Assembly (NCBI GenBank): GCA_003251535.1
Contig: QKFD01000117.1
Coordinates: forward strand, 1 to 38,283
DNA: 38,283 nucleotides
Direction of reading: 5' to 3'
Origin: Chromatiales bacterium
Lineage (GTDB): Bacteria; Pseudomonadota; Gammaproteobacteria; Thiohalomonadales; Thiohalomonadaceae
The translations under genes and the position numbers were made by a program. The number at the start of each line of letters is the position of its first letter. Positions within the stretch are counted from its first letter, which is position 1. Shown piece after piece: positions 5,864 to 38,283 of this stretch. The notes under the pieces were generated by a model. That model made no database searches and had not been told where the DNA came from. It saw only the letters and a list, made by a program, of their open reading frames with translations.

Positions 5864-7195
5864 ATGCAGATCGCGCTCATCTCCCCCAAAGGCCCCCTCT
5901 ACCGCCACCGTGGCGGGATCTTCAAGCGCTCGCTGCGCTACGCCCCGCTCACCCTCACCACCCTGGCGGCGCTGGTGCCAGCGGAGCTGGGGGCGACGGT
6001 ACGGCTCTATGACGAGGGGGTGGAGGAGCTGCCGGCCGATCTTGAGGCCGATCTGGTGGGGTTGACGGTCATCACCGGCACCGCCCCGCGCAGCTACGAG
6101 CTGGCGGATCAGTTCCGCCGCCGCGGCATCCCGGTGGTGCTGGGGGGGCCCCATGTCACCCTCCTGCCGGAGGAGGCGGCGGCCCACGCCGATGCGGTGG
6201 TCACCGGCTATGCCGAGCAGAGTTGGCCACAGCTGCTGCGCGACTTCGCCCGCGGCCAGCTGGCGCCGCGCTACCGCCAGGGGGCCGATTTCCGCCTCGA
6301 TAGCCCGGTCTTCCCCGCCCGCCAGCTGCTGGATAGGCGCCACTTTCTCACCATGGATGTGTTCGAGGCGACCCGCTCCTGCAACCACGACTGCGACTTC
6401 TGCGTCGCCCCCACCGCCTGGGGCCGCAAGCCCTATCAGAAGCCGGTGGAGCATGTGGTGGAGGATATCCGCCGCCAGGGGGCGAAGCGGGCCATCTTCA
6501 TTGATCTCAACCTGATCGCCGATCGCGCCTACGCCAGCCGCCTGTTCCGCGCCCTGATCCCCCTCGGGATCCGCTGGTTTGGCCTCTCCACCCTGCTCAT
6601 CGCCCACGACCCGGAGCTGCTGGGCCTGATGGCCCAGAGCGGCTGCCGCGGTCTGCTCATCGGCTTTGAGACCATCTCCAGCGCCAACCTCGCCTCCGCC
6701 CACAAACGGTTCAACGACCCAGCGGCCTACCAAGCGGTGGTGGCCGAACTCCACCGCCACGGCATCAGCGTCATGGGCTGCTTTGTCTTTGGCCTGGATG
6801 AGGATACCGAGGAGGTGTTTGAGCGCACCGCCCGCTTCGTGGTAGAGGCGGCCATCGACCTGCCCCGCTTCGCCATCGCCACCCCCTTCCCCGGCACGCC
6901 GTTCTATCAACGGCTGGAGGCGGAGGGGCGCATCCTCAGCCGCGACTGGGAGCTGTATGACGGCCAGCATGTGGTGTTCCGCCCGGCGCGGATGTCGGTG
7001 GCGGCGCTGGCCGCCGGCCACGAGTGGGCCTGGCGCTACGCCTACCGCTACCGCTCCATCGCCCGCCGCCTGCTGCGCTCGCGGGTGCAGCTGCCCATCG
7101 CCATCTCCTCCAACCTGGGCTACCGCTTCTACGCCCACCACCTGCACTGCTTCTACAACTGCGACTGGTACACCGGCCAGCGCGCCGCCGTCTGA
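5864..7195 (+). CDS. B12-binding domain radical SAM protein (first of a pair)
   Basis: A 443-residue cytoplasmic protein. Residues 1-140 form a Rossmann-like cobalamin-binding fold (ADLVGLTVITGTAPRSYEL, VVLGGPHVTLLPEE). The radical SAM core follows from about 160, with the cluster cysteines Cys173, Cys177 and Cys180 in RSCNHDCDFC. Later core landmarks are GCRGLLIGFE and FPGTPFYQRLEAEGR. Enzymes of this family methylate unactivated carbons or rearrange substrates in lipid, hopanoid, antibiotic and tetrapyrrole pathways; the reaction here cannot be told from sequence. The stop codon overlaps the next gene's start (TGATG), so the pair is translationally coupled. Base composition is markedly G+C rich. 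Confidence 0.92.
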   Translation: MQIALISPKGPLYRHRGGIFKRSLRYAPLTLTTLAALVPAELGATVRLYDEGVEELPADLEADLVGLTVITGTAPRSYELADQFRRRGIPVVLGGPHVTLLPEEAAAHADAVVTGYAEQSWPQLLRDFARGQLAPRYRQGADFRLDSPVFPARQLLDRRHFLTMDVFEATRSCNHDCDFCVAPTAWGRKPYQKPVEHVVEDIRRQGAKRAIFIDLNLIADRAYASRLFRALIPLGIRWFGLSTLLIAHDPELLGLMAQSGCRGLLIGFETISSANLASAHKRFNDPAAYQAVVAELHRHGISVMGCFVFGLDEDTEEVFERTARFVVEAAIDLPRFAIATPFPGTPFYQRLEAEGRILSRDWELYDGQHVVFRPARMSVAALAAGHEWAWRYAYRYRSIARRLLRSRVQLPIAISSNLGYRFYAHHLHCFYNCDWYTGQRAAV

Positions 7196-8544
7196 TGCGC
7201 CTCACCCTCATCCATCCCGCCATGGGCCGCCGCGTCGGCCAACGCTATCTGCGCAGCTGGCAGATGGAGTCACTGCCGGCGGCGCTGCTGGCCGGGCTCA
7301 CCCCGCCGGGGGTGGAGGTGCGTTTCTATGACGACCGCATGGAGGCGATCCCCTTCGACGAGCCGACCGATCTCGTCGCCCTCTCCGTGGAGACCTACAC
7401 CGCCCGCCGCGCCTACCAGATCGCCTCCGACTACCGCGCCCGCGGCGTGCCGGTGGTGATGGGGGGGTTCCACGCCACCCTCTGCCCGGAGGAGGTGGGG
7501 CGCTACGCCGAGGCGGTGGTGGTGGGGGAGGCAGAGGGGATCTGGCCGGAGCTGATCGACGACTTCCGCCACGGCCGCTTGCAGCCGCGCTACCAAGGCG
7601 CCCCCCGCCCTGGCCTGCTGGAGCTACCGTTTGACCGCTCCCTCTTTGCCGGCAAGCACTACCTCCCCATCGCCCTGGTGGAGGCGGGACGCGGCTGCCG
7701 CTTCCGCTGCGACTTCTGCGCGGTGCAGGGCTTCTTTGGCGGGCGCCACCAGCAGCGGCCGGTGGAGGATGTGGTGCGGGAGCTGCGGACCCTCGGCCAC
7801 GCCCGGCTCATCTTCTTTGTCGATGACAACTTCGGTGCCGATCGCCCGGCGGCGCTCGAACTGCTCCGCGCCATCGCCCCCTTGCGGCTGCGCTGGGTGA
7901 CCCAGATCGCCATCGACGCCGCCCACGACGAGGCGTTTGTGGCCGCCCTGGCCGAGGCCGGCTGCCGCGGTGTGCTCATCGGCCTGGAGAGCCTCGATGC
8001 CGACGCCCTGCGCCAGATGAACAAGGGCTTCAACACCATGCGCGGCGGCTTCGGTCCGGCCCTGGCCCAGCTGCGCCGCCACCGCATCCCGGTCTACGCC
8101 ACCTTCGTCTTCGGCTACGACGGCGACACCGCCGCCAGCTTCGACAACGCCCTCGCCTTCGCCATCGAGCAGCGCTTCTACATCGCCGCCTTCAACCATC
8201 TGGTCCCCTTCCCCGGCACACCGCTCTACCAGCGGCTGCAACAGGAGCAGCGGCTGCTGTTTGACCAGTGGTGGCTGGATCCCCACTACCGCTACAACCT
8301 CGCTCCCTTTCAGCCGCGCCAGCTCACCCCGGAGGCGCTGCGCACCCACTGCGTCGCCACCCGCCGCCGCTTCTACTCCGCCGGCAGCATCCTGCGCCGC
8401 GGCCTGGCCGCCAGCAACCGCCCCGATCTCTTCATGCTGCGCAACTTCCTCCCCATCAACCTGATGCACCGGCTGGAGATCGGCCAGCGCGACCACCACC
8501 CGCTGGGCGATGCCGGCTGGCGCGGGGAGCTGCTGCCGGTGTGA
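7195..8544 (+). CDS. B12-binding domain radical SAM protein (second of a pair)
   Basis: A 449-residue paralogue of the preceding protein. The N-terminal cobalamin-binding domain shows VRFYDDRMEAIP and VVMGGFHATLCPEE. The radical SAM core carries Cys168, Cys172 and Cys175 in GRGCRFRCDFCAV, followed by FFVDDNFGADR, GCRGVLIGLESLD and FPGTPLYQRLQQE. The ATG at 7195 is shared with the TGA of the upstream gene; a longer open frame starting at 7024 overlaps that gene heavily and is rejected. The two proteins share the same architecture but are clearly divergent, which suggests sequential steps or a heteromeric pair acting on one substrate. The stop overlaps the GTG of the GNAT-like gene. Confidence 0.92.
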   Translation: MRLTLIHPAMGRRVGQRYLRSWQMESLPAALLAGLTPPGVEVRFYDDRMEAIPFDEPTDLVALSVETYTARRAYQIASDYRARGVPVVMGGFHATLCPEEVGRYAEAVVVGEAEGIWPELIDDFRHGRLQPRYQGAPRPGLLELPFDRSLFAGKHYLPIALVEAGRGCRFRCDFCAVQGFFGGRHQQRPVEDVVRELRTLGHARLIFFVDDNFGADRPAALELLRAIAPLRLRWVTQIAIDAAHDEAFVAALAEAGCRGVLIGLESLDADALRQMNKGFNTMRGGFGPALAQLRRHRIPVYATFVFGYDGDTAASFDNALAFAIEQRFYIAAFNHLVPFPGTPLYQRLQQEQRLLFDQWWLDPHYRYNLAPFQPRQLTPEALRTHCVATRRRFYSAGSILRRGLAASNRPDLFMLRNFLPINLMHRLEIGQRDHHPLGDAGWRGELLPV

Positions 8545-9647
8545 GCGGGGCACAGGAGATAGTCCGGGCCGGCCTCTGCTACCGCCTGGCGGGGGCCGCC
8601 GATGAGGCGGAGCTGCGCGCCCTGCTGCAACCTCCGCTGCCGGGCTGGGTGGCCCTCAGCTTTGAGCGCGAACCCCACTACTTCGCCGCCGCGGCCAGTG
8701 AGGGGGAGCGCCACGCGGTACTGCTGGCGCGGGAGCTAAAATCGGGCCGGCTGGCGGGCTACTACAGCCGGGCGGTGCGCCCCGCCTATATCAATGGTGA
8801 GCGGCAGTGGCTCGGCTATCTCGGCCAGCTGCGGGTCGCCCCCGCCTTCCGCGGCGGCTACCACTACATCCGCCACGGCTTTGCCGCCGGCCGCGCCCTC
8901 TTGCGCCGCCCCGACGAGCTGCCGTTTGATCTCACCAGCATCCTCGGTGACAACCACCCCGCCCGCCGCCTACTCACCGCCGATCTGCCAGGGATGCCGC
9001 GCTACAGCCCGCTCTCGCCCTTGCTGACGTGGGTGTTCCGCAGCCGGCGCGGGGCGCTGCCGAGCGGCCTAGTCAGCGGCGGCGAGGTGGGGCTGGCGGC
9101 CATCGCCGACTGCCTGCAACGCAATCTGCGGCGGGCCCAGTGCGCCCCCTACTGGGACCCCGCCCGCCTGACCCAGGCCGGCCTCAGCGCCGACGACTTT
9201 CTGGTGATCCAGGGCGGGGGGCAGGTGACGGCCTGCGCCGCGGTGTGGGACCTGCGGGCGGTGAAGCAGGCGGTGGTGCGCGGCTACCGCCCCCCCATCC
9301 AGCAGCTGCGCCTGCTGCTCAACGGCATCGCCCCCCTGCTCGGCCTGCCGCGGCTGCCGCCCTTAGGGAGCGTCCTGCGCCAGGGCTACCTCTCCCACCT
9401 CGCCTGCGATGCCGACGACGGCAGCGCGGCGGCACTGCTGCTGCGCGGCGCCCGCGCCCAGGCCGCCCGGCGCGGCCTCGATAGCCTGCTACTCGGCACC
9501 ACCCCCAGCCACCCCCTGGCGCCCCCCCTCGCCCGCCAAGGGCGCCACCTGGAGTACCGCAGCCAGCTCTATCTGGTCCACTGGCCAGAGCTGCCACCGC
9601 CCCTACTCGACCAGCGCCCGCTACAGGTAGAGCTGGCCACCCTCTAA
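8541..9647 (+). CDS. GNAT-like acyltransferase, 368 aa
   Basis: A protein about twice the length of a simple GNAT domain. The N-terminal half shows the GNAT core GYLGQLRVAPAFRGG, a degenerate form of motif A (RxxGxG/A normally). The C-terminal half contains a second GNAT-like fold by eye (YLSHLACDADDGSAAALLLR, then ARRGLDSLLLG). I start it at the GTG at 8541, which overlaps the previous stop by four bases and has GGGGAG upstream. No ATG start fits, and upstream extension would run into the radical SAM gene. As the third gene of a coupled operon it probably acylates the product of the radical SAM enzymes, but that is inference. It ends four bases from the convergent AurF-like gene. Confidence 0.75.
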   Translation: MSGAQEIVRAGLCYRLAGAADEAELRALLQPPLPGWVALSFEREPHYFAAAASEGERHAVLLARELKSGRLAGYYSRAVRPAYINGERQWLGYLGQLRVAPAFRGGYHYIRHGFAAGRALLRRPDELPFDLTSILGDNHPARRLLTADLPGMPRYSPLSPLLTWVFRSRRGALPSGLVSGGEVGLAAIADCLQRNLRRAQCAPYWDPARLTQAGLSADDFLVIQGGGQVTACAAVWDLRAVKQAVVRGYRPPIQQLRLLLNGIAPLLGLPRLPPLGSVLRQGYLSHLACDADDGSAAALLLRGARAQAARRGLDSLLLGTTPSHPLAPPLARQGRHLEYRSQLYLVHWPELPPPLLDQRPLQVELATL

Positions 9648-9651
9648 CGGC

Positions 9652-10563
9652 TCAGCGCCAGTGGAAGGCGGGATAGCGCTGGAGCAGGGCGTGGGTCAAC
9701 GGCAGTGCCTGGGGGGAGTCAATGAGTTCGGCCAGCCCCGGATCGCGCCCCAACGCCCGCACCGCCGCCACCATCTGCGGCAGCGCCGGGCGCAGCGCGG
9801 GGAACTCGGCGACCAGGTGGTGCAGCACCCGGATCCCGGAGCGTTTGGGGGCCAGCAGTTCCGCCAATAAATAGCGGAACAGCCGGCCGTTCAGGGCGTT
9901 CGCCCAGGGCCGCAGCTCGGCCGATAGCAGCTCGATGAGGCTGGCGTCGAGCTGTACATGGCGCGCCTCGTCCAGCAGGTGGAGGCGGTGCAGCTCCACA
10001 TAGCTCGGCGCCAGCCCCGGCTCCGCCAACAGCTGGCGGGAGAAGGCGGTGGAGAACTCCTCCAGCAGCAAGATCAGCCACACCAGCAGCGGCCAGCGCC
10101 CCGGTATGGCGCCCACCAGCGCCAGCAGCCCTTGCGCCAACTGGCCCGGGCGGGCGAAGTAACCGCCCGCATCGCCATAGGCGGCCGGCAGCAGGGCGCG
10201 GTTGAAGGCGAGGAAGAGGGCGTGGTGGCGCCCCTCCTCCAACAGCATCAGCCGCAGGCAGTCGGCCAGTAGCGGCTGCCGCTGCTGGAGCCGGCGCTGG
10301 AGCCGCGCCACCACCCGCTGCGTGAAGCCGGCCTCAAACAGCATGAATAGCTCATTGGCCCGCAGCCCGGAGAGCTGGTTGTAGCGCAGCTGTTGGGCGC
10401 TGCTCAGCCGCTCCCACCAGGGGGTGTGCCAGAGCTGGGTGAAGCGATCCGCCACCAGCGGTTGGCAGAGCGGCAGTGAGGGGGGCGGTGGTGCCCGGTA
10501 GTGCCCCTGCGCCGCCTCGCTCGCCTGCTGGAGCGCCGTCAACTGCTCAAGGTCCAGGCTCAT
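9652..10563 (-). CDS. AurF-like ferritin-fold diiron oxygenase
   Basis: A 303-residue helical protein with the metal-ligand pattern of the p-aminobenzoate N-oxygenase (AurF) family. The pattern comprises a first-helix Glu in ANELFMLFEAGF (Glu71 or Glu77), Glu110-x-x-His113 in LLEEGRHH, Glu168/169 in LLEEFSTAF, and His195-x3-Glu199-x2-His202 in HLLDEARH. That last spacing, HxxxExxH, is the AurF signature with the additional histidine ligand. The family uses O2 at a diiron site to oxidise amines to nitro groups or to do related oxidations; the substrate here is unknown. The ATG overlaps the stop of the upstream desaturase (ATGA), so the two are translationally coupled. Confidence 0.85.
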   Translation of the reverse strand: MSLDLEQLTALQQASEAAQGHYRAPPPPSLPLCQPLVADRFTQLWHTPWWERLSSAQQLRYNQLSGLRANELFMLFEAGFTQRVVARLQRRLQQRQPLLADCLRLMLLEEGRHHALFLAFNRALLPAAYGDAGGYFARPGQLAQGLLALVGAIPGRWPLLVWLILLLEEFSTAFSRQLLAEPGLAPSYVELHRLHLLDEARHVQLDASLIELLSAELRPWANALNGRLFRYLLAELLAPKRSGIRVLHHLVAEFPALRPALPQMVAAVRALGRDPGLAELIDSPQALPLTHALLQRYPAFHWR

Positions 10564-11489
10564 GCGAGGTCCTGGTAGGCGGCAGCGCTCAGAGGCTCCG
10601 GTCCCGGCTGGGTGCAGGGGCGCGGCCCGCGCCAGAGCCGCCCATAGTGGCGCCAGTAGCCGGTGTCATACCCCTCCCCTCCCGCCTGCTGCGGTAGGTG
10701 GATCCAGGGGCAGCGGGGGTGCTGATGGTGGACCCGGTCCCAGTGGCCGTTGAGTAGCAGCCACTGCTCCGGCCGACTCAGCGCCAGGTTGAGGGCGCCG
10801 TCGCGCACCTCGCGGGGGGTGAAGGCGTGGGTGAGGTATTGGCGGGTTGACCAGTTGTAACCAAACAGGGCGTAGCAGAGCAGCACCGCCCCGGCGTCGA
10901 GGGCCAGCAGCTGGCCCACCCCCCACCAGGCCAGCAACCCGAGCAGCGTCTCCAGCCGCAGCCGCTTCACCGCCTGCGGCCCGAAGTCGTCAAACAGCAC
11001 CCGCGTCGAGCGGGCGCGGCGGAACGGCGCACTCTGCAACAGCCGCGGAGTGAACGCCAACAGCAGATTGCCGAGGGGGATCAGCCACCACCAGATCCCG
11101 AGCAGCAGGCCATACCACTGGACCCGCTTCAGCCAGCGGCTATCTCCCGGGTAGTAGCAGTCGAACATCTCGTAGTCGGTGCGGTTACAGCGGTGGTGGA
11201 CCGCGTGGGTGGTAGTAATGAGGGTGAAGGAGATGGGGAACAGCCAGCCCAACAGGGTGCCGAGCAGAGAGTTGAGACGCGGATCTGGATGGAGGATGCC
11301 GTGGGTCGCCTCATGCAGTAGGGCGTAGGCGGTGAGCAGCAGATGGGCGTAGAGCAGGCCAACGGCCAACCGCCCCGGCCAACCCAACTGCGAGGCCCAC
11401 CAGAGCAGCCCCAGCGCCGCGGCCACCACCCCGCCACTGAGCAGCAGATTGAGGCGGGTGGGGATGGGATAGGGCTGGGCTGAAGGCAT
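10560..11489 (-). CDS. membrane fatty acid desaturase family protein
   Basis: A 309-residue integral membrane diiron protein of the fatty acid desaturase/hydroxylase family. The three histidine boxes are HEATH (residues 59-63), HAVHH (95-99) and HHQHP (254-258, after HWDRV). Hydrophobic segments lie around 14-33, 43-58, 75-92, 127-145 and 183-210. The start is the ATG at 11489 with GGAGGAG four bases upstream; the frame's longer N-terminus crosses the divergent intergenic region. It would desaturate or hydroxylate an acyl chain or a lipid-linked substrate at the inner membrane. Coupling to the AurF-like gene suggests two successive O2-dependent diiron steps in one pathway. Confidence 0.9.
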   Translation of the reverse strand: MPSAQPYPIPTRLNLLLSGGVVAAALGLLWWASQLGWPGRLAVGLLYAHLLLTAYALLHEATHGILHPDPRLNSLLGTLLGWLFPISFTLITTTHAVHHRCNRTDYEMFDCYYPGDSRWLKRVQWYGLLLGIWWWLIPLGNLLLAFTPRLLQSAPFRRARSTRVLFDDFGPQAVKRLRLETLLGLLAWWGVGQLLALDAGAVLLCYALFGYNWSTRQYLTHAFTPREVRDGALNLALSRPEQWLLLNGHWDRVHHQHPRCPWIHLPQQAGGEGYDTGYWRHYGRLWRGPRPCTQPGPEPLSAAAYQDLA

Positions 11490-11581
11490 GGTGCTCCTCC
11501 GAGGTCGTAAGAGGCTGGCGCATCGATAGCAGAGATCGCGGGCGGCGTATACTCCCCCCACCCCTTGGATCACCCTCGGCC
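11490..11581. promoter_or_regulatory. divergent promoter region (desaturase / membrane protein)
   Basis: This 92-base gap must hold promoters for both divergent genes. On the plus strand a TATACT hexamer at 11548-11553 is a good -10 match about 30 bases before the ATG at 11582, but no convincing -35 lies 16-18 bases upstream. The exact promoters are therefore not resolved. Confidence 0.3.
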
Positions 11582-12235
11582 ATGGCACCCTCCCCCACCC
11601 CACCCCCCAGTCGTTTCATGCTGGCCCTGCTCTATCTGCCGCTACTGCTGCTGGTGGCCGGCGCGCTGCTGGCCGCCCAGCTGCCCAGCTGGGGCAGTGC
11701 CCTCGGCCTCTTTCTCGGTTGGCTCTACCTGCTGCCGCCGCTGCTCTGTCGGCTGCTGCTGTGGCGCTACGGCCCGCCCCTGACCCGCGGGGCCGATCCG
11801 CAGGAGCGCCCCTTCCGCCTCTGGTGGCTGCTCACCCAGCTCCAGATGCCGTTCAACCGTATCGGGTTACTGGAGGAGCTGCTGAAGCTGCTGCCGGGCC
11901 TCTATCCCCTCTGGCTCAACCTCTGGGGGGCGCGGGTGAGTCTGTTCAGCTTCTGGGGGCGGGAGGTGATGGTGACCGAGCGCTACCTGCTGGAGGTGGG
12001 GCGCGGGGCGGTGCTGGCCAGCTATAGCGGACTGGTGGGCCACCTGCTGGTGCAGACCGCGGCGGGGCAGCGGCAGCTCATCGTGGCGCCGGTGGTGGTG
12101 GAGGCGGGGGCGCTGGTGGGGATCCGTGCCGGGCTCGGCCCCGGCTGCCGCCTGTTCCAGCAAGAGCAGCTGCCGGCCGGCCGCCTGCTCCCCCCCTTCA
12201 CCGGTTGGCGCGCGGGGCACAAGGTGGCGCTATGA
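11582..12235 (+). CDS. membrane-anchored protein with hexapeptide-like (left-handed beta helix) C-terminus
   Basis: A 217-residue protein. Two strongly hydrophobic segments (about residues 13-33 and 42-61) are followed by a cytoplasmic loop and a C-terminal part (about 120-200) rich in short Ile/Val/Leu-G-x repeats, such as VAPVVVEAGALVGIRAGLG. That pattern resembles left-handed beta-helix acyltransferases (LpxA/carrier-acyltransferase type). The assignment is by pattern only, and no catalytic residue can be named. The start may be the ATG at 11582 or Met13 at 11618; neither has a strong ribosome-binding site. It diverges from the desaturase gene and could belong to the same locus. Confidence 0.6.
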   Translation: MAPSPTPPPSRFMLALLYLPLLLLVAGALLAAQLPSWGSALGLFLGWLYLLPPLLCRLLLWRYGPPLTRGADPQERPFRLWWLLTQLQMPFNRIGLLEELLKLLPGLYPLWLNLWGARVSLFSFWGREVMVTERYLLEVGRGAVLASYSGLVGHLLVQTAAGQRQLIVAPVVVEAGALVGIRAGLGPGCRLFQQEQLPAGRLLPPFTGWRAGHKVAL

Positions 12236-12574: not shown

Positions 12575-15500
12575 ATGAAGCTCTCCCTACCGGAGCCTGA
12601 GGCCCGGGAGGTGTTGGTTGCGCTCGATGCCTATCGGGCCATCCTCGACGGCATCACCGATCCGATCTTCCAACACGACAGCCAGTTTCGGGTCGTGTAC
12701 GCCAATCGTGCCTACCTGCAAGCCGCCGGCCTCAGCGCAGAGGAGGTGCTGGGCCGCCCCTACTGGACCCTGTTTCCCAAGCTCGACCAACCCCTGGCCG
12801 GCTGCCAACGCGCCGTTGAAGAGGGGACCACCACCTTCTTTGAGGAGGAGTTCACCCAGGGGGATCGCGTCTACGTCTCCCGCACCCACCCCCTGCCGGC
12901 CAGCCCGGGCGGGAGCGCCACCGGCATCCACATCCTGGTGGATGTCACGCAAACCCGGCACGCCACTAAGGCCCAGGCCGAGCTGGCCGCCGCCCTGGAG
13001 CAGGAGCACCGGCGGCTGACCAAACGGGTCAAGGAGCTGCACTGCCTCCACACCATCTCGGCGTTGGCGGCCAGCCCGGGGCTTCAGCTGGAGCAGCTGC
13101 TGGCCCGCCTCCCGCCGCTGATAGTGGCCGCCTACCGCTACGCCGAGGTCGCCGTCGCCCTGGTGGAGATAGATCAACAGCGCTACGCCTCCGAGGGCTA
13201 CCGGGAGACCGAGTGGACCCAACAGGTGCCCATCCTCGTGGAGGGCCAGCCGGTGGGTCGGGTGGCGGTGGCCTATCTGGAGGAGCGTCCCGCCGCCGTC
13301 GAGGGGCCCTTTCTCACGGAAGAGCGGCAGCTGCTGGACACCATCGCCTGGCGCCTCGCCACCCTGCGCCATGAGCAGCTGACCCAGGCGGCCCTGCGGG
13401 AGAGCGAGACCCGCTACCGCACCCTCTACGAGATGATGGAGCAGGGGGTGATCTATCAGGACTGTAGCGGACGCATTATCGACGCCAACCTGGCGGCCCA
13501 GCGCATCCTCGGCCGCCCCCTCGACCAGCTGCGCGGCCGTAGCGTCAACCGGATCCGCTGGCAGGCGGTACGGGAGGATGGCAGCCCGCTACCGGTGGAG
13601 GAGCACCCCTCGGTCCTGGCGCTGCGGGAGAACCTGCCGGTCACCGGTATCCTAGGCATCCCCCATGCCCAGGATAGGCGCCTACGCTGGATCCTGGTCA
13701 GCGCCATCCCGGTCCGCCAGGCGGGCTCCGATCGACTGCAACATGTCTTCACCACCTATAGCGACATCACCGAGCTACGCAGCGCCACCGACGCCCTCAC
13801 CGTGCGCAACCGCGCCATCGAGGCGAGCCGCAACGGCATCGCCATCATCGACGCCCAGCTGCACAACCACCCCATCGTCTATGCCAATCCGGCGTTGAGC
13901 GACATCGTTGGCCGGCCGCTCCCGCAGCTGGTGCAGCGGCCGGCCCACACCCTCTGGGCGGGCTGCGAGGCGGGCGAGTGTGAACGCATCCTCGCCGCCA
14001 TCGACCACTACCACTCGGTGGATGCGGTGCTGGAGAGCCGGCGCCCCGATGGCCACCGCTACTGGGCGGAGATCCAGATCTCTCCGGTACGGGATAGTGG
14101 CGGCGGCGTCACCCATTTTGTGGCGGTGGTGAATGACATCTCGGAGCGGCGCCGCTATGAGGAGCAGCTGGAGTTCCAAGCCCAACACGACGCCCTCACC
14201 AGCCTGCCCAACCGCAACCTGCTCCAAGACCGCCTGCGCCAGGCCATCGCCTACGCCAAACGCCACAGCTCCCTGGTGGGGGTGCTGTTCCTCGATGTGG
14301 ATCACTTCAAGCTGATCAACGACGCCCTCGGCCACGATACCGGCGACCGGCTGCTGCTGGCCCTGGCCCAGCGCCTGCGCGAGGTGTGCCGCGAGGAGGA
14401 CACCATCTCCCGCTACGGCGGCGACGAGTTTGTGCTGCTGCTGCCGGAGCTGGGGACGGAAGAGGAGCTGACCCACATGGCCAGCCGCCTGTTCACGGCG
14501 ATGGACCTGCCGTTCCAACTCGATGAGCGGGAGATGCACATCACCCTGAGCATCGGCGCCAGCATCTACCCAAAAGACGGCACCGATGCCGCCGTGCTGC
14601 TGCGCAACGCCGATACGGCGATGTACCGCGCCAAGGAGGCGGGCCGCGACAACCTCCAGTTCTACACCGAGCGGCTCAACGCCAACATCATGGAGCGGCT
14701 GCTGCTCGGCAGTCAGCTACGCAACGCCCTGGCCCAGGGCGAGCTACTGCTCCACTACCAGCCACAGTTCGATCTGCGGAGCGGCCGCATCTGCGGTGCC
14801 GAGGCGCTGCTGCGCTGGCACCACCCCGAGCAGGGGATGATCCCGCCCAGCAAGTTCATCCCGGTGGCGGAGGAGACCGGCCTCATCCTACCCATCGGCG
14901 AGTGGGTGTTAGAGCAGGCGTGTACCCAAGCGGCGGCCTGGCGCAAGGGCTCGATTCCCCCCATCACCATCGCGGTCAACCTCTCGGTGCGCCAGCTGGA
15001 GCAGGCGGACCTGGTGGCCAGCGTGGCGGCCATCCTGCAACGGACGGGGCTCGACCCGGCGGCGCTGGATCTGGAGATCACCGAGAGCGCCGTCATGCGC
15101 CAGCCAGAGGAGACGGCGGAGCAGCTGCTGGCGCTCAAACGGCTGGGGCTGATGTTGTCGCTGGATGACTTCGGCACCGGCTATTCGAGCCTCGCCTATC
15201 TGCGCCGCTTCGCCTTCCACCGCCTCAAGATCGACCACAGCTTCATCCGCGACATCATCACCGAGCCCAACGCCGCCCGCATCGCCCTCACCATCATCGC
15301 CATGTCCCAGAGCCTCGGGATGCGGGTCCTCGCCGAGGGGGTGGAGACCGACGCCCAGGCCAAGTTCCTGCACCGCCACGCCTGTGATGAGGTGCAGGGT
15401 TACCTGATGAGCAAGCCGCTGCCGGCAGCGGAGTTTGAGGCCTTTGCCCAGAGTGATTTTGTGCTCGATGTGGGCGATCCCGAGGGGCAGCGGCAGACCC

Positions 15501-15892
15501 TGCTGCTAGTGGATGACGAGGCCAATATCACCCGGGCGCTGACCCGCTCCCTCCGTCGGGATGGCTACCACATCCTGGTGGCCAACACCCCACACGACGC
15601 CCTGGAGCTGCTGGCCTGTCATCCGGTGCAGGTGATCGTCTCGGACCAGCGGATGCCGGAGATGACCGGCACCGAGCTGCTGGCGCGGGTCAAGGAGATC
15701 TATCCCGACATCATCCGCATCGTCCTCTCGGGCTATACCGAGTTGAAGACCATCACCGATTCGGTGAACCGCGGGGCGATCTACAAATTCCTCACCAAAC
15801 CGTGGGAGGAGCAGCAACTGCGCAACGAGGTGGCCGAGGCGTTCCGCCACTACGCCCGGCGCCGCAGCCGACAGAACGGCAGCGCCACCTGA
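12575..15892 (+). CDS. PAS-GAF-PAS-PAS-GGDEF-EAL protein with C-terminal REC domain
   Basis: An 1105-residue soluble c-di-GMP enzyme. Order: PAS (about 15-125), GAF (about 150-265), PAS (275-400), PAS (405-525), GGDEF (530-700), EAL (705-960), REC (973-1095). The cyclase motif GGDEF (615-619) is intact and is preceded by an inhibitory I-site REED (606-609). The phosphodiesterase keeps EAL (743-745), EITESA, LDDFGTGYSS and KIDHSF. The receiver has Asp1024 in VSDQRMPEM and Lys1075 in LTKPWEE. All catalytic motifs look functional, so it may switch between synthesis and breakdown of c-di-GMP. A REC at the C-terminus is unusual for this class. Its KPWE-type receiver is of the same type as those in the next genes, which suggests one signalling set. 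Confidence 0.93.
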   Translation: MKLSLPEPEAREVLVALDAYRAILDGITDPIFQHDSQFRVVYANRAYLQAAGLSAEEVLGRPYWTLFPKLDQPLAGCQRAVEEGTTTFFEEEFTQGDRVYVSRTHPLPASPGGSATGIHILVDVTQTRHATKAQAELAAALEQEHRRLTKRVKELHCLHTISALAASPGLQLEQLLARLPPLIVAAYRYAEVAVALVEIDQQRYASEGYRETEWTQQVPILVEGQPVGRVAVAYLEERPAAVEGPFLTEERQLLDTIAWRLATLRHEQLTQAALRESETRYRTLYEMMEQGVIYQDCSGRIIDANLAAQRILGRPLDQLRGRSVNRIRWQAVREDGSPLPVEEHPSVLALRENLPVTGILGIPHAQDRRLRWILVSAIPVRQAGSDRLQHVFTTYSDITELRSATDALTVRNRAIEASRNGIAIIDAQLHNHPIVYANPALSDIVGRPLPQLVQRPAHTLWAGCEAGECERILAAIDHYHSVDAVLESRRPDGHRYWAEIQISPVRDSGGGVTHFVAVVNDISERRRYEEQLEFQAQHDALTSLPNRNLLQDRLRQAIAYAKRHSSLVGVLFLDVDHFKLINDALGHDTGDRLLLALAQRLREVCREEDTISRYGGDEFVLLLPELGTEEELTHMASRLFTAMDLPFQLDEREMHITLSIGASIYPKDGTDAAVLLRNADTAMYRAKEAGRDNLQFYTERLNANIMERLLLGSQLRNALAQGELLLHYQPQFDLRSGRICGAEALLRWHHPEQGMIPPSKFIPVAEETGLILPIGEWVLEQACTQAAAWRKGSIPPITIAVNLSVRQLEQADLVASVAAILQRTGLDPAALDLEITESAVMRQPEETAEQLLALKRLGLMLSLDDFGTGYSSLAYLRRFAFHRLKIDHSFIRDIITEPNAARIALTIIAMSQSLGMRVLAEGVETDAQAKFLHRHACDEVQGYLMSKPLPAAEFEAFAQSDFVLDVGDPEGQRQTLLLVDDEANITRALTRSLRRDGYHILVANTPHDALELLACHPVQVIVSDQRMPEMTGTELLARVKEIYPDIIRIVLSGYTELKTITDSVNRGAIYKFLTKPWEEQQLRNEVAEAFRHYARRRSRQNGSAT

Positions 15893-16031
15893 GAGAGGCA
15901 ACACAGGATTAAGGCAGTAGCGGGTGGCACAGACCACAATGCAGTGAGGGTCGCGGCAGAAGGTGGGCGGCAGATCCCACATAGGGCCAGGCAGGGGGAG
16001 CCAAGTGGAGCAAGGGGAGAGCGGAAAGGCG

Positions 16032-17390
16032 ATGAACAACCCAGTCGATACGCTGCAAGAGCAGCCGCGCGCCAAGCTCCTCATCGTCGATGATGAGGCC
16101 AACATCCTCTCGGCGCTGCGCCGGGCGCTGCGCAGCCTGGGCCACGAACTACTGACCGCCGAGAGCGGTGAGGCGGGCCTGGCGCTGCTGGAGACGCAGA
16201 CGGTGGATCTCATCATCACCGATATGCGGATGCCCGGCATGAGCGGTGCCGTCTTTCTGGAGCAGGTGGCAGAGCGCTGGCCCGACACCATGCGGGTGCT
16301 GCTCACCGGCCACGCCGATCTCACCTCCACCATCGCCGCCATCAACCGCGGCCACATCTATCGCTACCTCAGCAAGCCGTGGGAGGACAGCGACCTGCGG
16401 GTCACCGTCGAGCAGGCGCTGGAGCAGCGCTTCATCCGCCGCGAGCGCGACCGGCTCCTGGCCCTCACCCACCGCCAGAACCAGCAGCTCAAGGAGTGGA
16501 ATGCCGACCTAGAGAACAAGGTGCGGGCCCGCACCGAGGAGATCCGCCAGACGGCGGATATGCTCGACCTCGCCTATCAGGAGCTGAAACGCAGCTATCA
16601 AGACGCCATCCCGGTCTTCGCCAACCTGATCGAGATGCGCGACGGCGAGGGGGGTGGCCACGGTCGCCGGGTGGCGGAGCAGAGCCGCGCCATGGCCATC
16701 GAGCTGGGGCTCGAAGAGGAGGTGGTGCAGAACATCTACTTTGCCGGATTGCTGCACGACATCGGCAAGCTCGGCCTGTCCGACCGACTGCTCACCACCC
16801 CCTTTGTCACCCTCAATCCCGCCGAGCGGCGCCAGGTGTTGAAACACCCGGTGATGGGCCAGGCGGCACTGCTGGCCCTGGAGTCGCTACAGGAGGCCTC
16901 GCTCCTCATCCGCCACCACCACGAGCGGTTCGATGGCAAGGGCTATCCAGACCGCCTCGCCGGCGAGGCGATCCCGCTGGGGGCGCGCATCCTGGCAGTG
17001 GTCAACGAGTATGACGCCCTCCAGCTCGGCACCCTGCTGGAGGGGCAGCTCTCCCCCGATGAGGCGCGCCGCTTCATCGAACAGGGGCGGGGCAGCCGCT
17101 ATGACCCCCGCATCGCCACCAGTTTCCTGGAGTGGCTGACCCGTCAGCCCGCCCAGCGCGTCACCCGCGACCTGCGCCTCGCCTCCACTGATCTGCGGGT
17201 GGGGATGGAGCTATCGCGCGATCTCACCAATGAAGATGGGCTGCTATTGCTGGCCAAAGGCCACCGCCTGGATGCGCGCCTCATTGAGCGCATCCTCGGG
17301 TTTGAGCGGGAGGAGAACCGCGGCTTTACCATCTATGTCAGCCTGCCAGAGGAGAATGACCATGCATCGAATCATGGTAGTGGACGATGA
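16032..17390 (+). CDS. response regulator with HD-GYP c-di-GMP phosphodiesterase domain (RpfG-like)
   Basis: A 452-residue protein. The REC domain (12-130) has phospho-acceptor Asp64 in IITDMRMPGM and Lys114 in LSKPWED. A coiled coil (about 135-185) leads to an HD-GYP domain (190-370) with LLHDIGKLGL (His242-Asp243), the HHHER motif and GKGYPDRL (GYP at 304-306), so it should hydrolyse c-di-GMP. A C-terminal beta-rich segment (about 390-452) with LRVGMELSRDLTNEDG is common behind such domains. The start is uncertain: the ATG at 16032 has GGAGAG about ten bases upstream, while a GTG at 16005 also has GGGGAG close by. The 3' end overlaps the next gene by 29 bases. Confidence 0.9.
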   Translation: MNNPVDTLQEQPRAKLLIVDDEANILSALRRALRSLGHELLTAESGEAGLALLETQTVDLIITDMRMPGMSGAVFLEQVAERWPDTMRVLLTGHADLTSTIAAINRGHIYRYLSKPWEDSDLRVTVEQALEQRFIRRERDRLLALTHRQNQQLKEWNADLENKVRARTEEIRQTADMLDLAYQELKRSYQDAIPVFANLIEMRDGEGGGHGRRVAEQSRAMAIELGLEEEVVQNIYFAGLLHDIGKLGLSDRLLTTPFVTLNPAERRQVLKHPVMGQAALLALESLQEASLLIRHHHERFDGKGYPDRLAGEAIPLGARILAVVNEYDALQLGTLLEGQLSPDEARRFIEQGRGSRYDPRIATSFLEWLTRQPAQRVTRDLRLASTDLRVGMELSRDLTNEDGLLLLAKGHRLDARLIERILGFEREENRGFTIYVSLPEENDHASNHGSGR

Positions 17391-17874
17391 CAAAAACATC
17401 GTTCGCGCCCTCAGCCGCAGCCTCACCGGCCCCGAACGGACGGTGGATGGCTTCACCGATCCGCTGGAGGCGCTGCGCCACGCCCGCGTCACCCCACTCG
17501 ATCTCATCCTGGTGGACTACCGGATGCCGGAGATGGATGGCCTCGCCTTTCTCACCGAGGTGCGGACCCTGCAACCCGAGGCGCTCCGCATCCTGGTGAG
17601 CGCCTTTGCCGATCTCCATTTGCTGATGGGGGCCATCAATGACGCCGAGGTCTACCGCTTCATCGCCAAGCCGTGGGAGGAGTATGACCTGCGCGCCACG
17701 GTGCGCAGCGCCCTGTTGGAGCGGGACCTGCGCAGCGAGAACCGGCGTCTGGCCAATGAGCTGCGGCGCCAGCGCGGTATCTTGGAGCGCATCGAGCAGA
17801 TCCATCCTGGTTTGACCCAAGTGGAGTGGGCGCCGGATGGGAGCATCCTCATCGATGAGGAGACGATGGAGTGA
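17362..17874 (+). CDS. stand-alone response regulator (REC plus short coiled-coil tail)
   Basis: A 170-residue protein. The receiver (1-118) has Asp8-Asp9-Asp10 in the acidic pocket, phospho-acceptor Asp52 in LVDYRMPEM and Lys103 in IAKPWEE. The tail (about 120-170) is a short charged helix ending in an acidic strand, with no DNA-binding or enzymatic domain. It resembles the RpfG/HupR-type receivers of its neighbours and may act by protein-protein contact, like CheY. I choose the ATG at 17362, seven bases after GAGGAGA; the ATG at 17356 is too close to that site. It overlaps the HD-GYP gene and is followed four bases later by the GTPase gene. Confidence 0.85.
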   Translation: MHRIMVVDDDKNIVRALSRSLTGPERTVDGFTDPLEALRHARVTPLDLILVDYRMPEMDGLAFLTEVRTLQPEALRILVSAFADLHLLMGAINDAEVYRFIAKPWEEYDLRATVRSALLERDLRSENRRLANELRRQRGILERIEQIHPGLTQVEWAPDGSILIDEETME

Positions 17875-17878
17875 ACCC

Positions 17879-18538
17879 ATGGCGGAGTACGACACGGAGG
17901 CAGGACGGCTACTCCTCAAGTTGGTCTACTACGGTCCAGCCCAGTCGGGGAAGACCACCAACCTGATGCGTCTGCACGACCTGCTGCGCCCCGATCTGAA
18001 GGGCTCCATCATGACCCTGGAGACCCAGAACGACCGGACCCTATTCTTTGATCTGCTCCCCTTTGGCATCCACTGCCCATCCGGTCTGCTGATCAAGTTC
18101 AAGCTCTTCACCGTCCCGGGCCAGGTGGCCCACGACAGCACCCGCAAGGCGGTGCTCTCGCGGGCCGACGGGGTGGTCTTTGTGGCCGACTCCCAACTCA
18201 ACCAGCAGGTGAACAACGGCGAGTCGTTCGACAACCTGGCGGAGAACGCCGGCCGGGTCGGCCTCGACTTCTCCCGCCTGCCACTGGTGGTGCAGTTCAA
18301 CAAGCGCGACCTGCCCCATATCGTGCCGGAGGCGGAGGTGCGTGCCCGCTGGTCCGCCACCCCGTGGCCGCTCACCCTCGCCAGCGCCCTCACCGGCCTC
18401 GGCGTGGCCCACACCTTCAGATTGCTGCTGGGCGCGGTCTACGACCGGGCCGATGGCGACTACCAGCTCGCCGCCCAACACGGCCTTAGCCGTGCGGCGC
18501 TCTTGGCGGCGGTGGCCGAGGAGAACCTGGATGAGTGA
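17879..18538 (+). CDS. MglA-like small Ras-family GTPase
   Basis: A 219-residue cytoplasmic GTPase. The P-loop is GPAQSGKT (19-26), G3 is TVPGQ (78-82, the MglA form in place of DxxG) and G4 is NKRDL (141-145). The following TRK and DGVVFVADSQ stretches are typical of the MglA group. MglA sets cell polarity and directs gliding or type IV pilus motors in Myxococcus and related systems. No MglB/Roadblock GAP gene is adjacent, which is unusual. The ATG at 17879 has GGAG at seven bases. The gene is packed between a response regulator and a histidine kinase, overlapping the latter by eight bases, so it is probably the switch of a phosphorylation-controlled pathway. Confidence 0.9.
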   Translation: MAEYDTEAGRLLLKLVYYGPAQSGKTTNLMRLHDLLRPDLKGSIMTLETQNDRTLFFDLLPFGIHCPSGLLIKFKLFTVPGQVAHDSTRKAVLSRADGVVFVADSQLNQQVNNGESFDNLAENAGRVGLDFSRLPLVVQFNKRDLPHIVPEAEVRARWSATPWPLTLASALTGLGVAHTFRLLLGAVYDRADGDYQLAAQHGLSRAALLAAVAEENLDE

Positions 18539-19679
18539 TCCGGTACTACCGCTCGATGGCTGCTTCGACCGCGACCTAAGTGCCGAGGAGCTGCTACCCC
18601 CAACGGTGCGGACCGCGGCGCTACAGGCATTGACGAGCCTGCTCGGCGACTGCCAACTGCTGACGCAGGCCCGCCCCGGGGCGGTGCCGGTACGCCACGA
18701 GATCGAGACCCTATTCTGGCTCTGGGCCACCGCGCCGACCGAGCAGCTGACCGCCGCCGCCGCCTTGTTGGAGCTGCTGATGCGGGCCGAGGCGCGCTAC
18801 CGGATGGCCTCCACCCTCCACCTGGAGGCGCTACGCCACGACTTCGATGAACTGACCCGCCGCAACGAGGCGCTGGTGGCCTCGGAGGCGCGCTACCGCG
18901 ACCTCGCCAGCCACTTGGAGCAGCGGGTCGCCGCCCAGGTGCAGCAGATCGAACAGACCCAACGCCAGCTCTTCCACGCCGAGAAGATGGTCTCCCTCGG
19001 TCAGCTGGCCGCCGGTGTCGCCCACGAGATCAACAACCCCCTCGGCTTCATCCGCAGCAATCTCAACAGCGCCCGCGGCTACCTGGAGGAGCTGGCGGCA
19101 CCGCTGCAAGGCCGCGGCCAGGATGAGCTACTGGAGGATTTCGCCGCCCTGCTGAGGGAGTCCATCGAGGGGGCCGACCGCGTGGCCCACATCGTCGCCA
19201 GCCTCAAGGACTTCTCCGGGGTCGATGGCGAGGCGCTGGTGGTGGCCGATCTCAACCAGGTCATTGAACAGGTGCTGGAGGTCTCCCACAGCCGCCTTGC
19301 CGGCATCACCCTCCAGCGCAACCTCCAACCGCTACCCAAGCTGCGCTGCCACGCCGCCAACCTCGGACAGGTGGTACTCCAGCTGCTACTCAACGCCGTG
19401 GACGCGGTGGCCCCGGGCGGGGTGATCCGCATCACCAGCGCGCTGCGCGATGGCCAGATCACCCTCGCGGTGCTGGACAACGGTGCCGGGATCGCCCCTG
19501 AGCACCTCTCGCGCATCTTCGATCCCTTCTTCACCACCAAGCCCGTGGGCAGTGGGGCGGGGCTCGGTCTCACCGTCAGCAACGATATCGTCCACGCCCA
19601 TGGCGGCCACATCGCGGTAGAGAGTCGGCTCGGCGCCGGGACCCAGGTCCGCGTCACCCTGCCGCTGGAGGGGAGCTGA
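18531..19679 (+). CDS. soluble sensor histidine kinase
   Basis: A 382-residue kinase with no membrane segment. An N-terminal helical region of about 90 residues with no recognised sensor fold leads into a coiled coil (about 95-150). HisKA carries His165 in [10 protein letters not shown]. HATPase has the N-box LLLNAVDAV (Asn288), G1 [14 protein letters not shown] and GAGLGL. All motifs for autophosphorylation are present. With no membrane or PAS sensor it may be controlled by a partner, perhaps the GTPase encoded just before it, with which it overlaps by eight bases. The stop shares TGATG with the next gene. Confidence 0.9.
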   Translation: MSDPVLPLDGCFDRDLSAEELLPPTVRTAALQALTSLLGDCQLLTQARPGAVPVRHEIETLFWLWATAPTEQLTAAAALLELLMRAEARYRMASTLHLEALRHDFDELTRRNEALVASEARYRDLASHLEQRVAAQVQQIEQTQRQLFHAEKMVSLGQLAAGVAHEINNPLGFIRSNLNSARGYLEELAAPLQGRGQDELLEDFAALLRESIEGADRVAHIVASLKDFSGVDGEALVVADLNQVIEQVLEVSHSRLAGITLQRNLQPLPKLRCHAANLGQVVLQLLLNAVDAVAPGGVIRITSALRDGQITLAVLDNGAGIAPEHLSRIFDPFFTTKPVGSGAGLGLTVSNDIVHAHGGHIAVESRLGAGTQVRVTLPLEGS

Positions 19680-23787: not shown

Positions 23788-23878
23788 CGAGTTCACCTTT
23801 CTGTGAAACATCGTTAGCATAGGGCGCCGCTGCCACCCCGGAGGGCAGCCCCAAGGATGAGAGGAGGCCGGCCGCCCG
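23788..23878 (+). other. short intergenic gap with two small hairpins
   Basis: Contains TTCAC/GTGAA (23792-23796 with 23803-23807, loop CTTTCT) and GCTGCC/GGCAGC (23829-23834 with 23844-23849). Neither has a T tract. It separates the signalling operon from the TIR gene. Confidence 0.4.
23792..23820 (+). promoter_or_regulatory. possible sigma-70-type promoter of the TIR gene
   Basis: TTCACC (23792-23797) and TAGCAT (23815-23820) are separated by 17 bases, each matching four of six consensus positions. The start codon follows about 59 bases later. The -35 is embedded in the small hairpin after the kinase gene. Support is by eye only. Confidence 0.3.
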
Positions 23879-25459: not shown

Positions 25460-25643
25460 TGCCTCCCTTCTGCCCCCCTACCACCGCCCTGCGCGACCAG
25501 GCCAGCACGGCCACGAGTCGGACATCTGCCAGATAGCGCTGCTGCTGGCCCGCCAACGGCGCCGCCTGCTCATCAATGAGCAGGGGCAGCTGCTCATCCC
25601 CGCCCTCGGTCGCTGGCTGCTGGAGGAGGCCCCCCTCTGTTAA
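25455..25643 (+). pseudogene. out-of-frame remnant resembling a second STAND C-terminus
   Basis: Just past the TIR gene stop, another frame stays open to a TAA at 25641. Its last 35 or so residues (ALLLARQRRRLLINEQG, then GRWLLEEA) resemble the end of the TIR protein itself (RLLERRGLLLEG, then LRRWLEEEQ). It has no start codon or ribosome-binding site in this frame. The simplest reading is the tail of a deleted paralogue or a frameshifted duplicated end. It is short, so chance cannot be excluded. Confidence 0.4.
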
Positions 25644-25653
25644 GGTTGGTGGC

Positions 25654-25682
25654 TGGCCATAACCGCCACCGCCTCCTACAAT
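25654..25682 (+). promoter_or_regulatory. possible promoter of the FIST-GGDEF operon
   Basis: TACAAT (25677-25682, five of six -10 positions) lies 17 bases after TGGCCA (25654-25659, four of six -35 positions). Transcription would start near 25689, about 30 bases before the ATG at 25720. No ribosome-binding site is evident before that ATG. Confidence 0.35.
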
Positions 25683-25719
25683 CGAACTCCTCACCGCCAC
25701 CCCCAACGCCACCCGCTCC

Positions 25720-37713: not shown

Positions 37714-37794
37714 TGCTCGTCTCCTTCGCCGCCCAATCCGGCGGACGAATCACTTGGAATAAGACGTTACAGCTCCAGAATCGAAACCCGGAGC

Positions 37795-37813
37795 GCGGGC
37801 GCAGTACGCCCGC
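37795..37813 (-). other. intergenic stem-loop between nifH and nifD
   Basis: A perfect 7-bp stem GCGGGCG (37795-37801) with CGCCCGC (37807-37813) and a five-base loop, about 27 bases after the nifH stop. Hairpins at this place in other diazotrophs stabilise a separate nifH message and raise NifH over NifDK; the same role is plausible here. Confidence 0.6.
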
Positions 37814-37840
37814 TACTCCACGGCACCGGGCGAAAAGTGC

Positions 37841-38283
<443 letters not shown>

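What the first reader, a model, noticed from the sequence alone, without database searches (positions are those of the whole stretch)
5864..12235. Candidate biosynthetic locus: paired B12 radical SAM enzymes, GNAT-like protein, AurF-like diiron oxygenase, desaturase and hexapeptide-like protein
Three coupled genes face two coupled genes with a four-base convergent gap, and a sixth diverges. The enzyme types (radical methylation or rearrangement, acylation, N- or C-oxidation, desaturation) fit a modified lipid or small metabolite. No PKS or NRPS is present, so common cluster finders may miss it.
Basis: inference. Interest (0 to 1): 0.6.

Follow-up and report, generated by a model that had tools for sequence, protein, structure and literature searches.

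The report
Orphan acyl-amide pathway, split across genome
These six genes look like the oxidising and methylating half of an uncharacterised bacterial pathway, probably for an acyl-amide lipid or small metabolite, whose likely partner genes sit elsewhere in the same genome.

Summary
In detail: six intact genes laid out as described: two B12-radical SAM proteins, a divergent acyltransferase-like protein, an AurF-family protein, a membrane desaturase and a hexapeptide-like protein. These families cluster, with recurring partners, in 13 lineages. All 13 have a GH3 amide ligase and an unnamed ~255-aa protein; SnoaL-like (10), PAP2 (7) and Rieske (7) proteins often join. In the window's genome GH3 and the 255-aa protein lie on contig C78, PAP2 and SnoaL on C102. 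In the stretches examined, the B12-rSAM pair (5 lineages) and a fused RnfD/FG-GAP/UnbV protein (5) do not occur together; AurF and hexapeptide share the same five. One version is on a mobilizable Citrobacter plasmid. The likeliest core chemistry is GH3-dependent acyl-amide formation with exchangeable redox modules. Product, substrates and activities are unproven. OlsH (GH3, ornithine lipid) is the nearest characterised ligase I found, but membership fails. Ten literature searches found no description of this cluster; a cyanobacterial orphan class (PMC8406957) resembles it in outline.

The parts
5864..7195 (+). g1, B12-binding radical SAM protein, rSAM1 orthology group; CxxxCxxC present
   Evidence: Pfam PF02310 + PF04055; 61-64% identical to proteins at the matching place in G318 C7, G172, G020 C126 and a Citrobacter plasmid; the three Cys are invariant in A8, 6 sequences; groups with G318, G172 and G020 rSAM1
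7195..8544 (+). g2, B12-binding radical SAM protein, rSAM2 orthology group
   Evidence: Pfam PF04055 + PF02310; 59-62% identical to the gene next to rSAM1 in G318 C7, G172 and the Citrobacter plasmid
8541..9647 (+). g3, divergent acyltransferase-like (GNAT-like) protein, 368 aa, follows rSAM2 directly
   Evidence: family found in 12 of 13 lineages; 2 of 5 aligned family members match Acetyltransf_9; no match for the window protein itself
9652..10563 (-). g4, AurF-family (PF11583) dimetal-carboxylate-type protein
   Evidence: Pfam 2.2e-12; E71, E110, H113, E169, H195, E199, H202 invariant in 5 aligned sequences, at spacings that fit the AurF ligands as recalled
10560..11489 (-). g5, membrane fatty-acid-desaturase-family protein
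   Evidence: Pfam PF00487 3.2e-23; HExxH and HxxHH in the 4 of 5 aligned sequences that cover them, later HH invariant in all 5; family in 11 of 13 lineages
11582..12235 (+). g6, hexapeptide-like (left-handed helix) protein with hydrophobic N-terminal part
   Evidence: 3 of 4 aligned family members match Hexapep; profile matches hexapeptide acetyltransferases in the PDB, best 3.8e-4; found in the same 5 of 13 lineages as AurF

Best explanation
The locus is the tailoring part of one pathway, split over three loci in this genome, that makes an acyl-amide lipid or lipid-like small metabolite. Proposed steps (all inferred): the GH3 enzyme (contig C78) adenylates a carboxylic acid, probably a fatty acid, and joins it to an amine or amino acid. 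The 255-aa protein and g3 transfer further acyl groups. The membrane desaturase g5 introduces a double bond or hydroxyl in the chain. The AurF-type dimetal enzyme g4 oxidises the amine nitrogen or a C-H bond. The B12-radical SAM pair g1/g2 methylates or rearranges unactivated carbons. g6 works with g4/g5, perhaps as an acyltransferase. PAP2 and the SnoaL-like protein (contig C102) act at or beyond the inner membrane. SHOWN by sequence: family-level identity, conserved motifs in g1, g2, g4, g5 and GH3, recurring clustering, the partner genes elsewhere in this genome, and exchange of modules between clusters. INFERRED: every substrate, reaction and their order, the joint function of the three loci, and the lipid nature of the product.
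For: Clustering in 13 lineages with GH3 and the 255-aa protein in 13, g3 in 12, desaturase in 11, SnoaL in 10, PAP2 in 7; GH3 was never the query that found a lineage. In the window's genome GH3 sits directly after the 255-aa protein on C78, and PAP2-SnoaL follow a LuxR-type gene on C102. In 274 genomes of the class 11 have a GH3 match, and the 8 above 300 bits are all genomes with g3 or the rSAM pair. The GH3 profile aligns over nearly its full length with plant acyl-acid amido synthetases, 2.7e-28; bacterial GH3 OlsH makes N-acyl ornithine from free fatty acids (PMC12493201: abstract, section 8 and passages seen). Desaturase and PAP2 families suggest lipid. In A. baumannii GH3, the 255-aa protein and g3 are interleaved with HlyD, MFS and outer-membrane efflux genes, which suggests export there.
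Against: No product, substrate or activity is known. GH3 enzymes also use benzoate, indole acetate and jasmonate-type acids (names), so 'fatty acid' is a guess. In the window's genome the partners are on separate contigs, so joint function rests on linkage in other lineages. The alpha/beta-hydrolase-like and Rieske partners were not sought in the whole window genome. AurF and hexapeptide are in only 5 of 13 lineages, and AurF homologues of G130 and G246 stand without the other families. Three genomes have a weaker GH3 match (130-148 bits) whose surroundings I did not examine. The G228 and A. baumannii versions lack a g5-type desaturase in the stretches examined and stand apart in the trees. 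None of 19 genomes of the window's own family has the AurF gene. Structure models of g3 and g4 were unusable (pLDDT 33 and 45).
Confidence: 0.5

Rival explanations
1. A small N-oxygenated metabolite (hydroxamate, nitro, azoxy or similar): AurF-type N-oxygenation with GNAT-type acylation and GH3 as the amide ligase, exported as a signal, metallophore or antibiotic.
For: AurF is the founding arylamine N-oxygenase of its Pfam family (recalled; PF11583 hit). In two examined genomes of another family (G130, G246) an AurF homologue stands beside a 219-229-aa protein that is GNAT-like by eye only; in G130 a ligase fragment weakly matches AMP-binding (23.8 bits, cut-off 29.9). Efflux genes stand in the A. 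baumannii relative.
Against: AurF is in only 5 of 13 clusters; desaturase and PAP2 are commoner and fit lipid chemistry better. The GNAT-like 229-aa protein has no Pfam match.
Confidence: 0.2
2. A relative of the orphan cyanobacterial 'Rieske-containing' clusters, in which the dimetal-carboxylate protein is a CylC-type halogenase or hydroxylase acting on free fatty-acid derivatives.
For: PMC8406957 (section 19 and passages seen): CylC homologues, distantly related to AurF, in clusters with 2-4 Rieske proteins, most with acyltransferases and desaturases, no carrier protein, no known product; in strains with the related PriA type the functions are dispersed over the genome. Three AurF-bearing clusters here (G054, G274, G763) have one or two Rieske proteins and a desaturase.
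Against: No CylC sequence could be compared; the section seen mentions neither GH3 nor radical SAM proteins; the window has no ORF matching the Rieske profile.
Confidence: 0.12
3. The six genes are neighbours with separate housekeeping or stress functions.
For: Three transcription units by layout; the flanking genes match none of the cluster profiles; the AurF gene is absent from the window's own family as sampled.
Against: The same families cluster in distant lineages with partly conserved order; GH3 co-occurrence.
Confidence: 0.04

Closest known systems
OlsH/OlsI GH3-dependent ornithine lipid pathway (Singulisphaera acidiphila, PMC12493201)
   Same: A bacterial GH3 enzyme as amide-forming ligase without PKS/NRPS; OlsI is an alpha/beta-hydrolase-fold protein, and a protein weakly matched to a carboxylesterase (E 0.004) occurs in 4 of 13 clusters here
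   Different: GH3 here scores 25.8 and 51.5 bits in two tested members against the OlsH cut-off of 620, and the A. baumannii one not at all; desaturase, AurF, B12-rSAM, PAP2 and UnbV-type modules were not seen in the parts of the paper I read
Cyanobacterial orphan Rieske-containing clusters with CylC homologues (PMC8406957)
   Same: Dimetal-carboxylate protein with acyltransferases, desaturases and Rieske proteins, no carrier protein, no known product
   Different: GH3 and B12-rSAM not mentioned in the section seen; sequence relation of g4 to CylC not tested
AurF/CmlI-type N-oxygenases (PF11583)
   Same: Pfam match above cut-off and candidate metal ligands conserved
   Different: Distant enough that no solved AurF-type structure is matched by sequence; no arylamine pathway genes recognised
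Enediyne cassette proteins UnbU/UnbV (recalled; PF07593 bears the name)
   Same: In 5 of 13 clusters one protein carries RnfD-type membrane, FG-GAP and ASPIC/UnbV domains (domains scanned in G054; family by profile)
   Different: Absent from the window; no comparison with enediyne proteins was made and enediyne PKS was not searched for
B12-radical SAM enzymes HpnJ, BchE, PhpK, HpnR
   Same: Domain layout and NCBIfam profile hits
   Different: Scores of 37.5-87 bits against cut-offs of 481-650, so none of these functions is assigned

Membership tests
AurF family (PF11583) | Profile match above the curated cut-off | tested here: met
   47.2 bits against 29.6
AurF family (PF11583) | Seven-ligand dimetal site (4 Glu, 3 His) | tested here: inconclusive
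   Candidate residues E71, E110, H113, E169, H195, E199, H202 invariant in 5 aligned sequences, but the AurF ligand positions are recalled and no AurF sequence or usable model was compared
AurF family (PF11583) | Arylamine N-oxygenase activity | not testable with these tools
   needs enzyme assay
CylC-type dimetal-carboxylate halogenase | Sequence clade with CylC | not tested
   no CylC sequence was at hand
B12-dependent radical SAM enzymes | B12-binding domain plus radical SAM domain with CxxxCxxC | tested here: met
HpnJ / BchE / PhpK / HpnR equivalogs | Score above the NCBIfam cut-off | tested here: not met
Fatty acid desaturase family (PF00487) | Profile match and His boxes | tested here: met
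OlsH lyso-ornithine lipid synthetase (NF052613) | Score above the NCBIfam cut-off (620) | tested here: not met
   51.5 bits for the G274 GH3, 25.8 bits for the window genome's GH3
GH3 acyl-acid amido synthetase superfamily | GH3 domain over cut-off and near full-length match to solved GH3 enzymes | tested here: met
   PF03321 over cut-off in the window's genome and in relatives; profile A9 to GH3.12 over columns 12-517 of 523
GNAT acyltransferases (g3) | GNAT profile match | tested here: inconclusive
   none for the window protein; 2 of 5 aligned members weakly match Acetyltransf_9
Hexapeptide-repeat transferases (g6) | Hexapep profile match | tested here: inconclusive
   none for the window protein; 3 of 4 aligned members match, best 4.5e-5; no catalytic residue identified

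The most novel reading that the evidence does not exclude
A scattered, undescribed GH3-centred class of PKS/NRPS-free biosynthetic clusters in Pseudomonadota, in which a B12-radical-SAM pair and an enediyne-cassette-like RnfD/UnbV electron-transfer module are interchangeable ways of doing one demanding step on the same acyl-amide scaffold. It can travel on mobilizable plasmids, and the window carries a hybrid of the two versions (rSAM module of one, AurF/desaturase/hexapeptide module of the other).
Probability: 0.3. Interest if true: 0.8.

Novelty: new variant of a known kind. Interest (0 to 1): 0.6.

Why it matters
It defines a concrete, testable cluster family around an amide ligase (GH3) rather than a PKS or NRPS, and names likely partner genes elsewhere in this genome, so a single deletion plus metabolomics could reveal a new compound class. 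The use of either a B12-radical SAM pair or a fused RnfD/FG-GAP/UnbV protein in otherwise similar clusters offers a handle on what UnbU/UnbV-type proteins do.

Tried and rejected
Considered and dropped: (a) 'unrelated neighbours', contradicted; (b) assignment of g1/g2 to hopanoid, bacteriochlorophyll or phosphinothricin enzymes, far below cut-offs; (c) OlsH membership of the GH3; (d) a plasmid or viral home of g4: no match in 72,556 plasmid records at E <= 1e-5 and none in viral contigs; g5 gave no plasmid match at E <= 1e-30, although g1 and the 255-aa protein have homologues on a Citrobacter plasmid; the UnbV-type fusion gave only partial plasmid matches, 4 records; (e) E. coli: the Citrobacter cluster DNA has no near match in 5,426 E. 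coli genomes.

Led nowhere: structure predictions of g3 and g4 were too poor, so no fold search was made; sequence searches of solved structures with g4, g3 (only weak N-acetyltransferase matches, best 0.15) and the 255-aa family; promoter and terminator scan (0 promoter-like; 3 terminator-like against 1.6 expected, none at the g3/g4 junction). In one tree the G228 GH3 row was in the wrong frame; it was replaced and the tree rebuilt. The idea that the window's GH3 comes from the UnbV-type clusters is not supported: either grouping is allowed (AU p 0.48 with the rSAM type, 0.42 with the UnbV type). g3 leans to the rSAM type without firm support (79/88; grouping with the UnbV type not rejected, p 0.20). 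g5 is placed with Sedimenticola (99/97), whose row was cut by a contig end.
Full report
OBSERVATION. The six genes are present and intact at the stated coordinates. Borders used: g1 5864-7195, g2 7195-8544, g3 8541-9647 (GTG start) on the plus strand, g4 9652-10563 and g5 10560-11489 on the minus strand, g6 11582-12235 on the plus strand. The three-gene and two-gene units overlap at their stop/start codons, they converge across four bases, and g6 diverges from g5 across 92 bases. Pfam supports B12-binding plus Radical_SAM for g1 and g2, AurF for g4 and FA_desaturase for g5. g3 and g6 match nothing on their own; aligned homologues give weak GNAT (2 of 5) and hexapeptide (3 of 4) matches.

HOW RARE. 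With the AurF profile, 7 of 369 genomes of the class sample match at E <= 1e-15: four above 240 bits (G000, G054, G274, G318) and three of one other family at 84-110 bits. Only the window's own genome matches in the 398 genomes of the phylum sample. In the first search 3 of 144 genomes matched, the window's own among them, and the 19 listed members of the same family had none. In the order of G318, 1 of 24 matched, G318 itself. The distribution is patchy, as for an accessory, horizontally moving pathway.

CONSERVED NEIGHBOURHOODS. I fetched hit regions, called ORFs and scored 937 ORFs of at least 100 aa from 25 loci with profiles of each family; 20 loci are cluster stretches and five are comparison stretches. 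Counts of 13, absence meaning absence in the fetched stretches, some of which end at contig ends: GH3 13, the ~255-aa protein 13, g3 family 12 (not G020), g5-type desaturase 11 (not G228, A. baumannii), SnoaL-like 10, PAP2 7, Rieske 7, B12-rSAM of the g1/g2 family 5, AurF 5, hexapeptide (g6) 5, fused RnfD/FG-GAP/UnbV protein 5, ~200-aa membrane protein 5, alpha/beta-hydrolase-like protein 4. Selection: five lineages were found with AurF, four with g3, one with rSAM, three with the 255-aa protein (Citrobacter also with g1), so those counts lean to their own query; GH3, desaturase, PAP2, SnoaL, Rieske and hexapeptide found no lineage. Examples of order: G172 has 255-aa protein, GH3, rSAM1, rSAM2, g3, Rieske, hydrolase-like, SnoaL, desaturase, PAP2, all in one direction; G318 C7 has GH3, rSAM1, rSAM2, g3; G318 C29 has 255-aa protein, rSAM, rSAM, AurF, hexapeptide, desaturase; G215 has Rieske, membrane protein, 255-aa protein, GH3, g3, UnbV-type fusion, second desaturase, hydrolase-like, SnoaL, desaturase.

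COMPARISON STRETCHES. The five were not random: G130 and G246 (distant AurF hits), G318 C2 (distant RnfD hit), G318 C4 (weak SnoaL hit) and a neighbouring stretch of G228. G130 and G246 show AurF only; G318 C2 an RnfD match (93 bits) and an rSAM match (136 bits); G318 C4 a SnoaL match only; the G228 stretch nothing. In the window no ORF outside 5864-12235 matches any profile.

THE LIKELY OTHER HALF. The window's genome has one GH3 match, on contig C78, directly preceded by and overlapping the 255-aa protein (C78:20966-23379 by conversion). A SnoaL-like gene on contig C102 is directly preceded by a PAP2 gene and, before it, a LuxR-type regulator. These places lie kilobases from contig ends, so the split is unlikely to be an assembly effect. 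In 274 genomes of the class, 11 match the GH3 profile; the eight above 300 bits (G000, G020, G054, G172, G185, G215, G228, G274) are all genomes with g3 or the rSAM pair; the other three score 130-148 bits and were not examined. For the rSAM profile, 20 of 369 genomes match at E <= 1e-50, but only G000, G318, G172 and G020 exceed 580 bits; the next is 339.

MODULES. The rSAM pair (G000, G318, G172, G020, Citrobacter) and the UnbV-type fusion with its ~200-aa membrane protein (G054, G274, G763, G215, G185) do not overlap in the stretches examined; two random sets of five of 13 would be disjoint about 4% of the time (56/1287, hand calculation, relatedness not corrected). Whole-genome checks agree where made: no close rSAM at E <= 1e-30 in G054, G274 and G763, and only partial matches to the fusion protein in G318 (RnfD part) and G000 (FG-GAP part). 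Against a strict rule, G215 and G185 hold a different radical SAM gene next to the cluster (73 and 60 bits). AurF and hexapeptide are in exactly the same five lineages. g1 falls in one orthology group with G318, G172 and G020, g2 in another with G318 and G172. g5 of the window is the sister of the Sedimenticola desaturase with firm support, and Sedimenticola has the UnbV-type version with AurF and hexapeptide. The window's locus may thus combine the rSAM module of one cluster type with the AurF/desaturase/hexapeptide module of the other; g3 leans to the rSAM type without firm support and GH3 is undecided.

MOBILITY. A 12-kb version (255-aa protein, GH3, rSAM1 63% and rSAM2 60% identical to g1 and g2, g3, two more rSAM, PAP2, SnoaL, a fifth rSAM, desaturase) lies on the 159-kb IncFIB/IncFII plasmid NZ_CP134684.1 of Citrobacter portucalensis, typed as mobilizable. 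It has a near match in 1 of 72,556 plasmid records, itself, and in none of 5,426 E. coli genomes.

WHAT IT PROBABLY DOES. The commonest parts are an amide ligase (GH3), two acyltransferase-like proteins and a membrane desaturase. GH3 enzymes adenylate an acid and pass it to an amine (established knowledge); the profile aligns nearly end to end with plant GH3 enzymes of known structure, and OlsH shows that a bacterial GH3 can make N-acyl ornithine from free fatty acids (PMC12493201; abstract, section 8 and passages seen). Most SnoaL-like members carry an N-terminal signal-like stretch and a C-terminal hydrophobic stretch (read by eye), and PAP2 proteins are membrane enzymes, so part of the work may take place at the periplasmic face. 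In A. baumannii GH3, the 255-aa protein and g3 are interleaved with HlyD, MFS and outer-membrane efflux genes. I therefore favour an acyl-amide lipid or lipid-like exported metabolite, oxidised by g4 and g5 and methylated or rearranged by g1 and g2. That the 255-aa protein is an acyltransferase is a guess by eye: the members tested match no family and the family no solved structure.

KNOWN WORK. Searches listed no paper that describes this cluster as far as titles and abstract starts show; only open-licence papers are held. PMC8406957 (section 19 and passages seen) describes orphan cyanobacterial clusters with CylC homologues, Rieske proteins, acyltransferases and desaturases, which resemble the Rieske-bearing versions here in outline; the sequence relation was not tested. 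Statements on AurF chemistry, AurF ligand spacing and the enediyne UnbU/UnbV proteins are recalled.

VERDICT. The finding is real and richer than stated: an orphan pathway that is modular, dispersed over three loci in this genome, and plasmid-borne in one relative. It is called a new variant of a known kind because GH3-dependent amide lipids and orphan dimetal/desaturase clusters are known kinds, and because no product is known.

Noticed in passing
L098 9099-16778 (NZ_CP064203.1, A. baumannii): HlyD and MFS genes, 255-aa protein, GH3, outer-membrane efflux protein and g3-like protein in one run: a minimal triad with its own export genes.
   Followed up: partly
L018 8099-12614 and L019 7330-11919 (G130, G246): A distant AurF homologue beside a glycosyltransferase-like gene (by eye) and a 219-229-aa GNAT-like protein (by eye, no Pfam match in G130); in G130 a ligase fragment weakly matches AMP-binding (L007). 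A different AurF cluster.
   Followed up: partly
L065 12304-15334 and L093 4491-7934: A distinct radical SAM protein next to a cytochrome P450 (Pfam-confirmed in L065; by eye in L093) at the edge of two UnbV-type clusters.
   Followed up: partly
L092 end, L004, L027 (G763): Three contigs of the Sedimenticola MAG overlap at their ends (97% over 393 bases, 93% over 424 bases), so its cluster is probably continuous with strain variation.
   Followed up: partly
window 36241-38281: Nitrogenase component 1 and NifH-family genes at the contig end: the organism may be a nitrogen fixer.
   Followed up: no
window 12575-28121: A long run of signalling-like genes (PAS/GGDEF/EAL and response-regulator-like, read by eye) downstream of the locus.
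   Followed up: no
G000 C102 (L091 7352-8452): LuxR-type regulator directly before PAP2-SnoaL, a candidate regulator of the dispersed pathway.
   Followed up: partly
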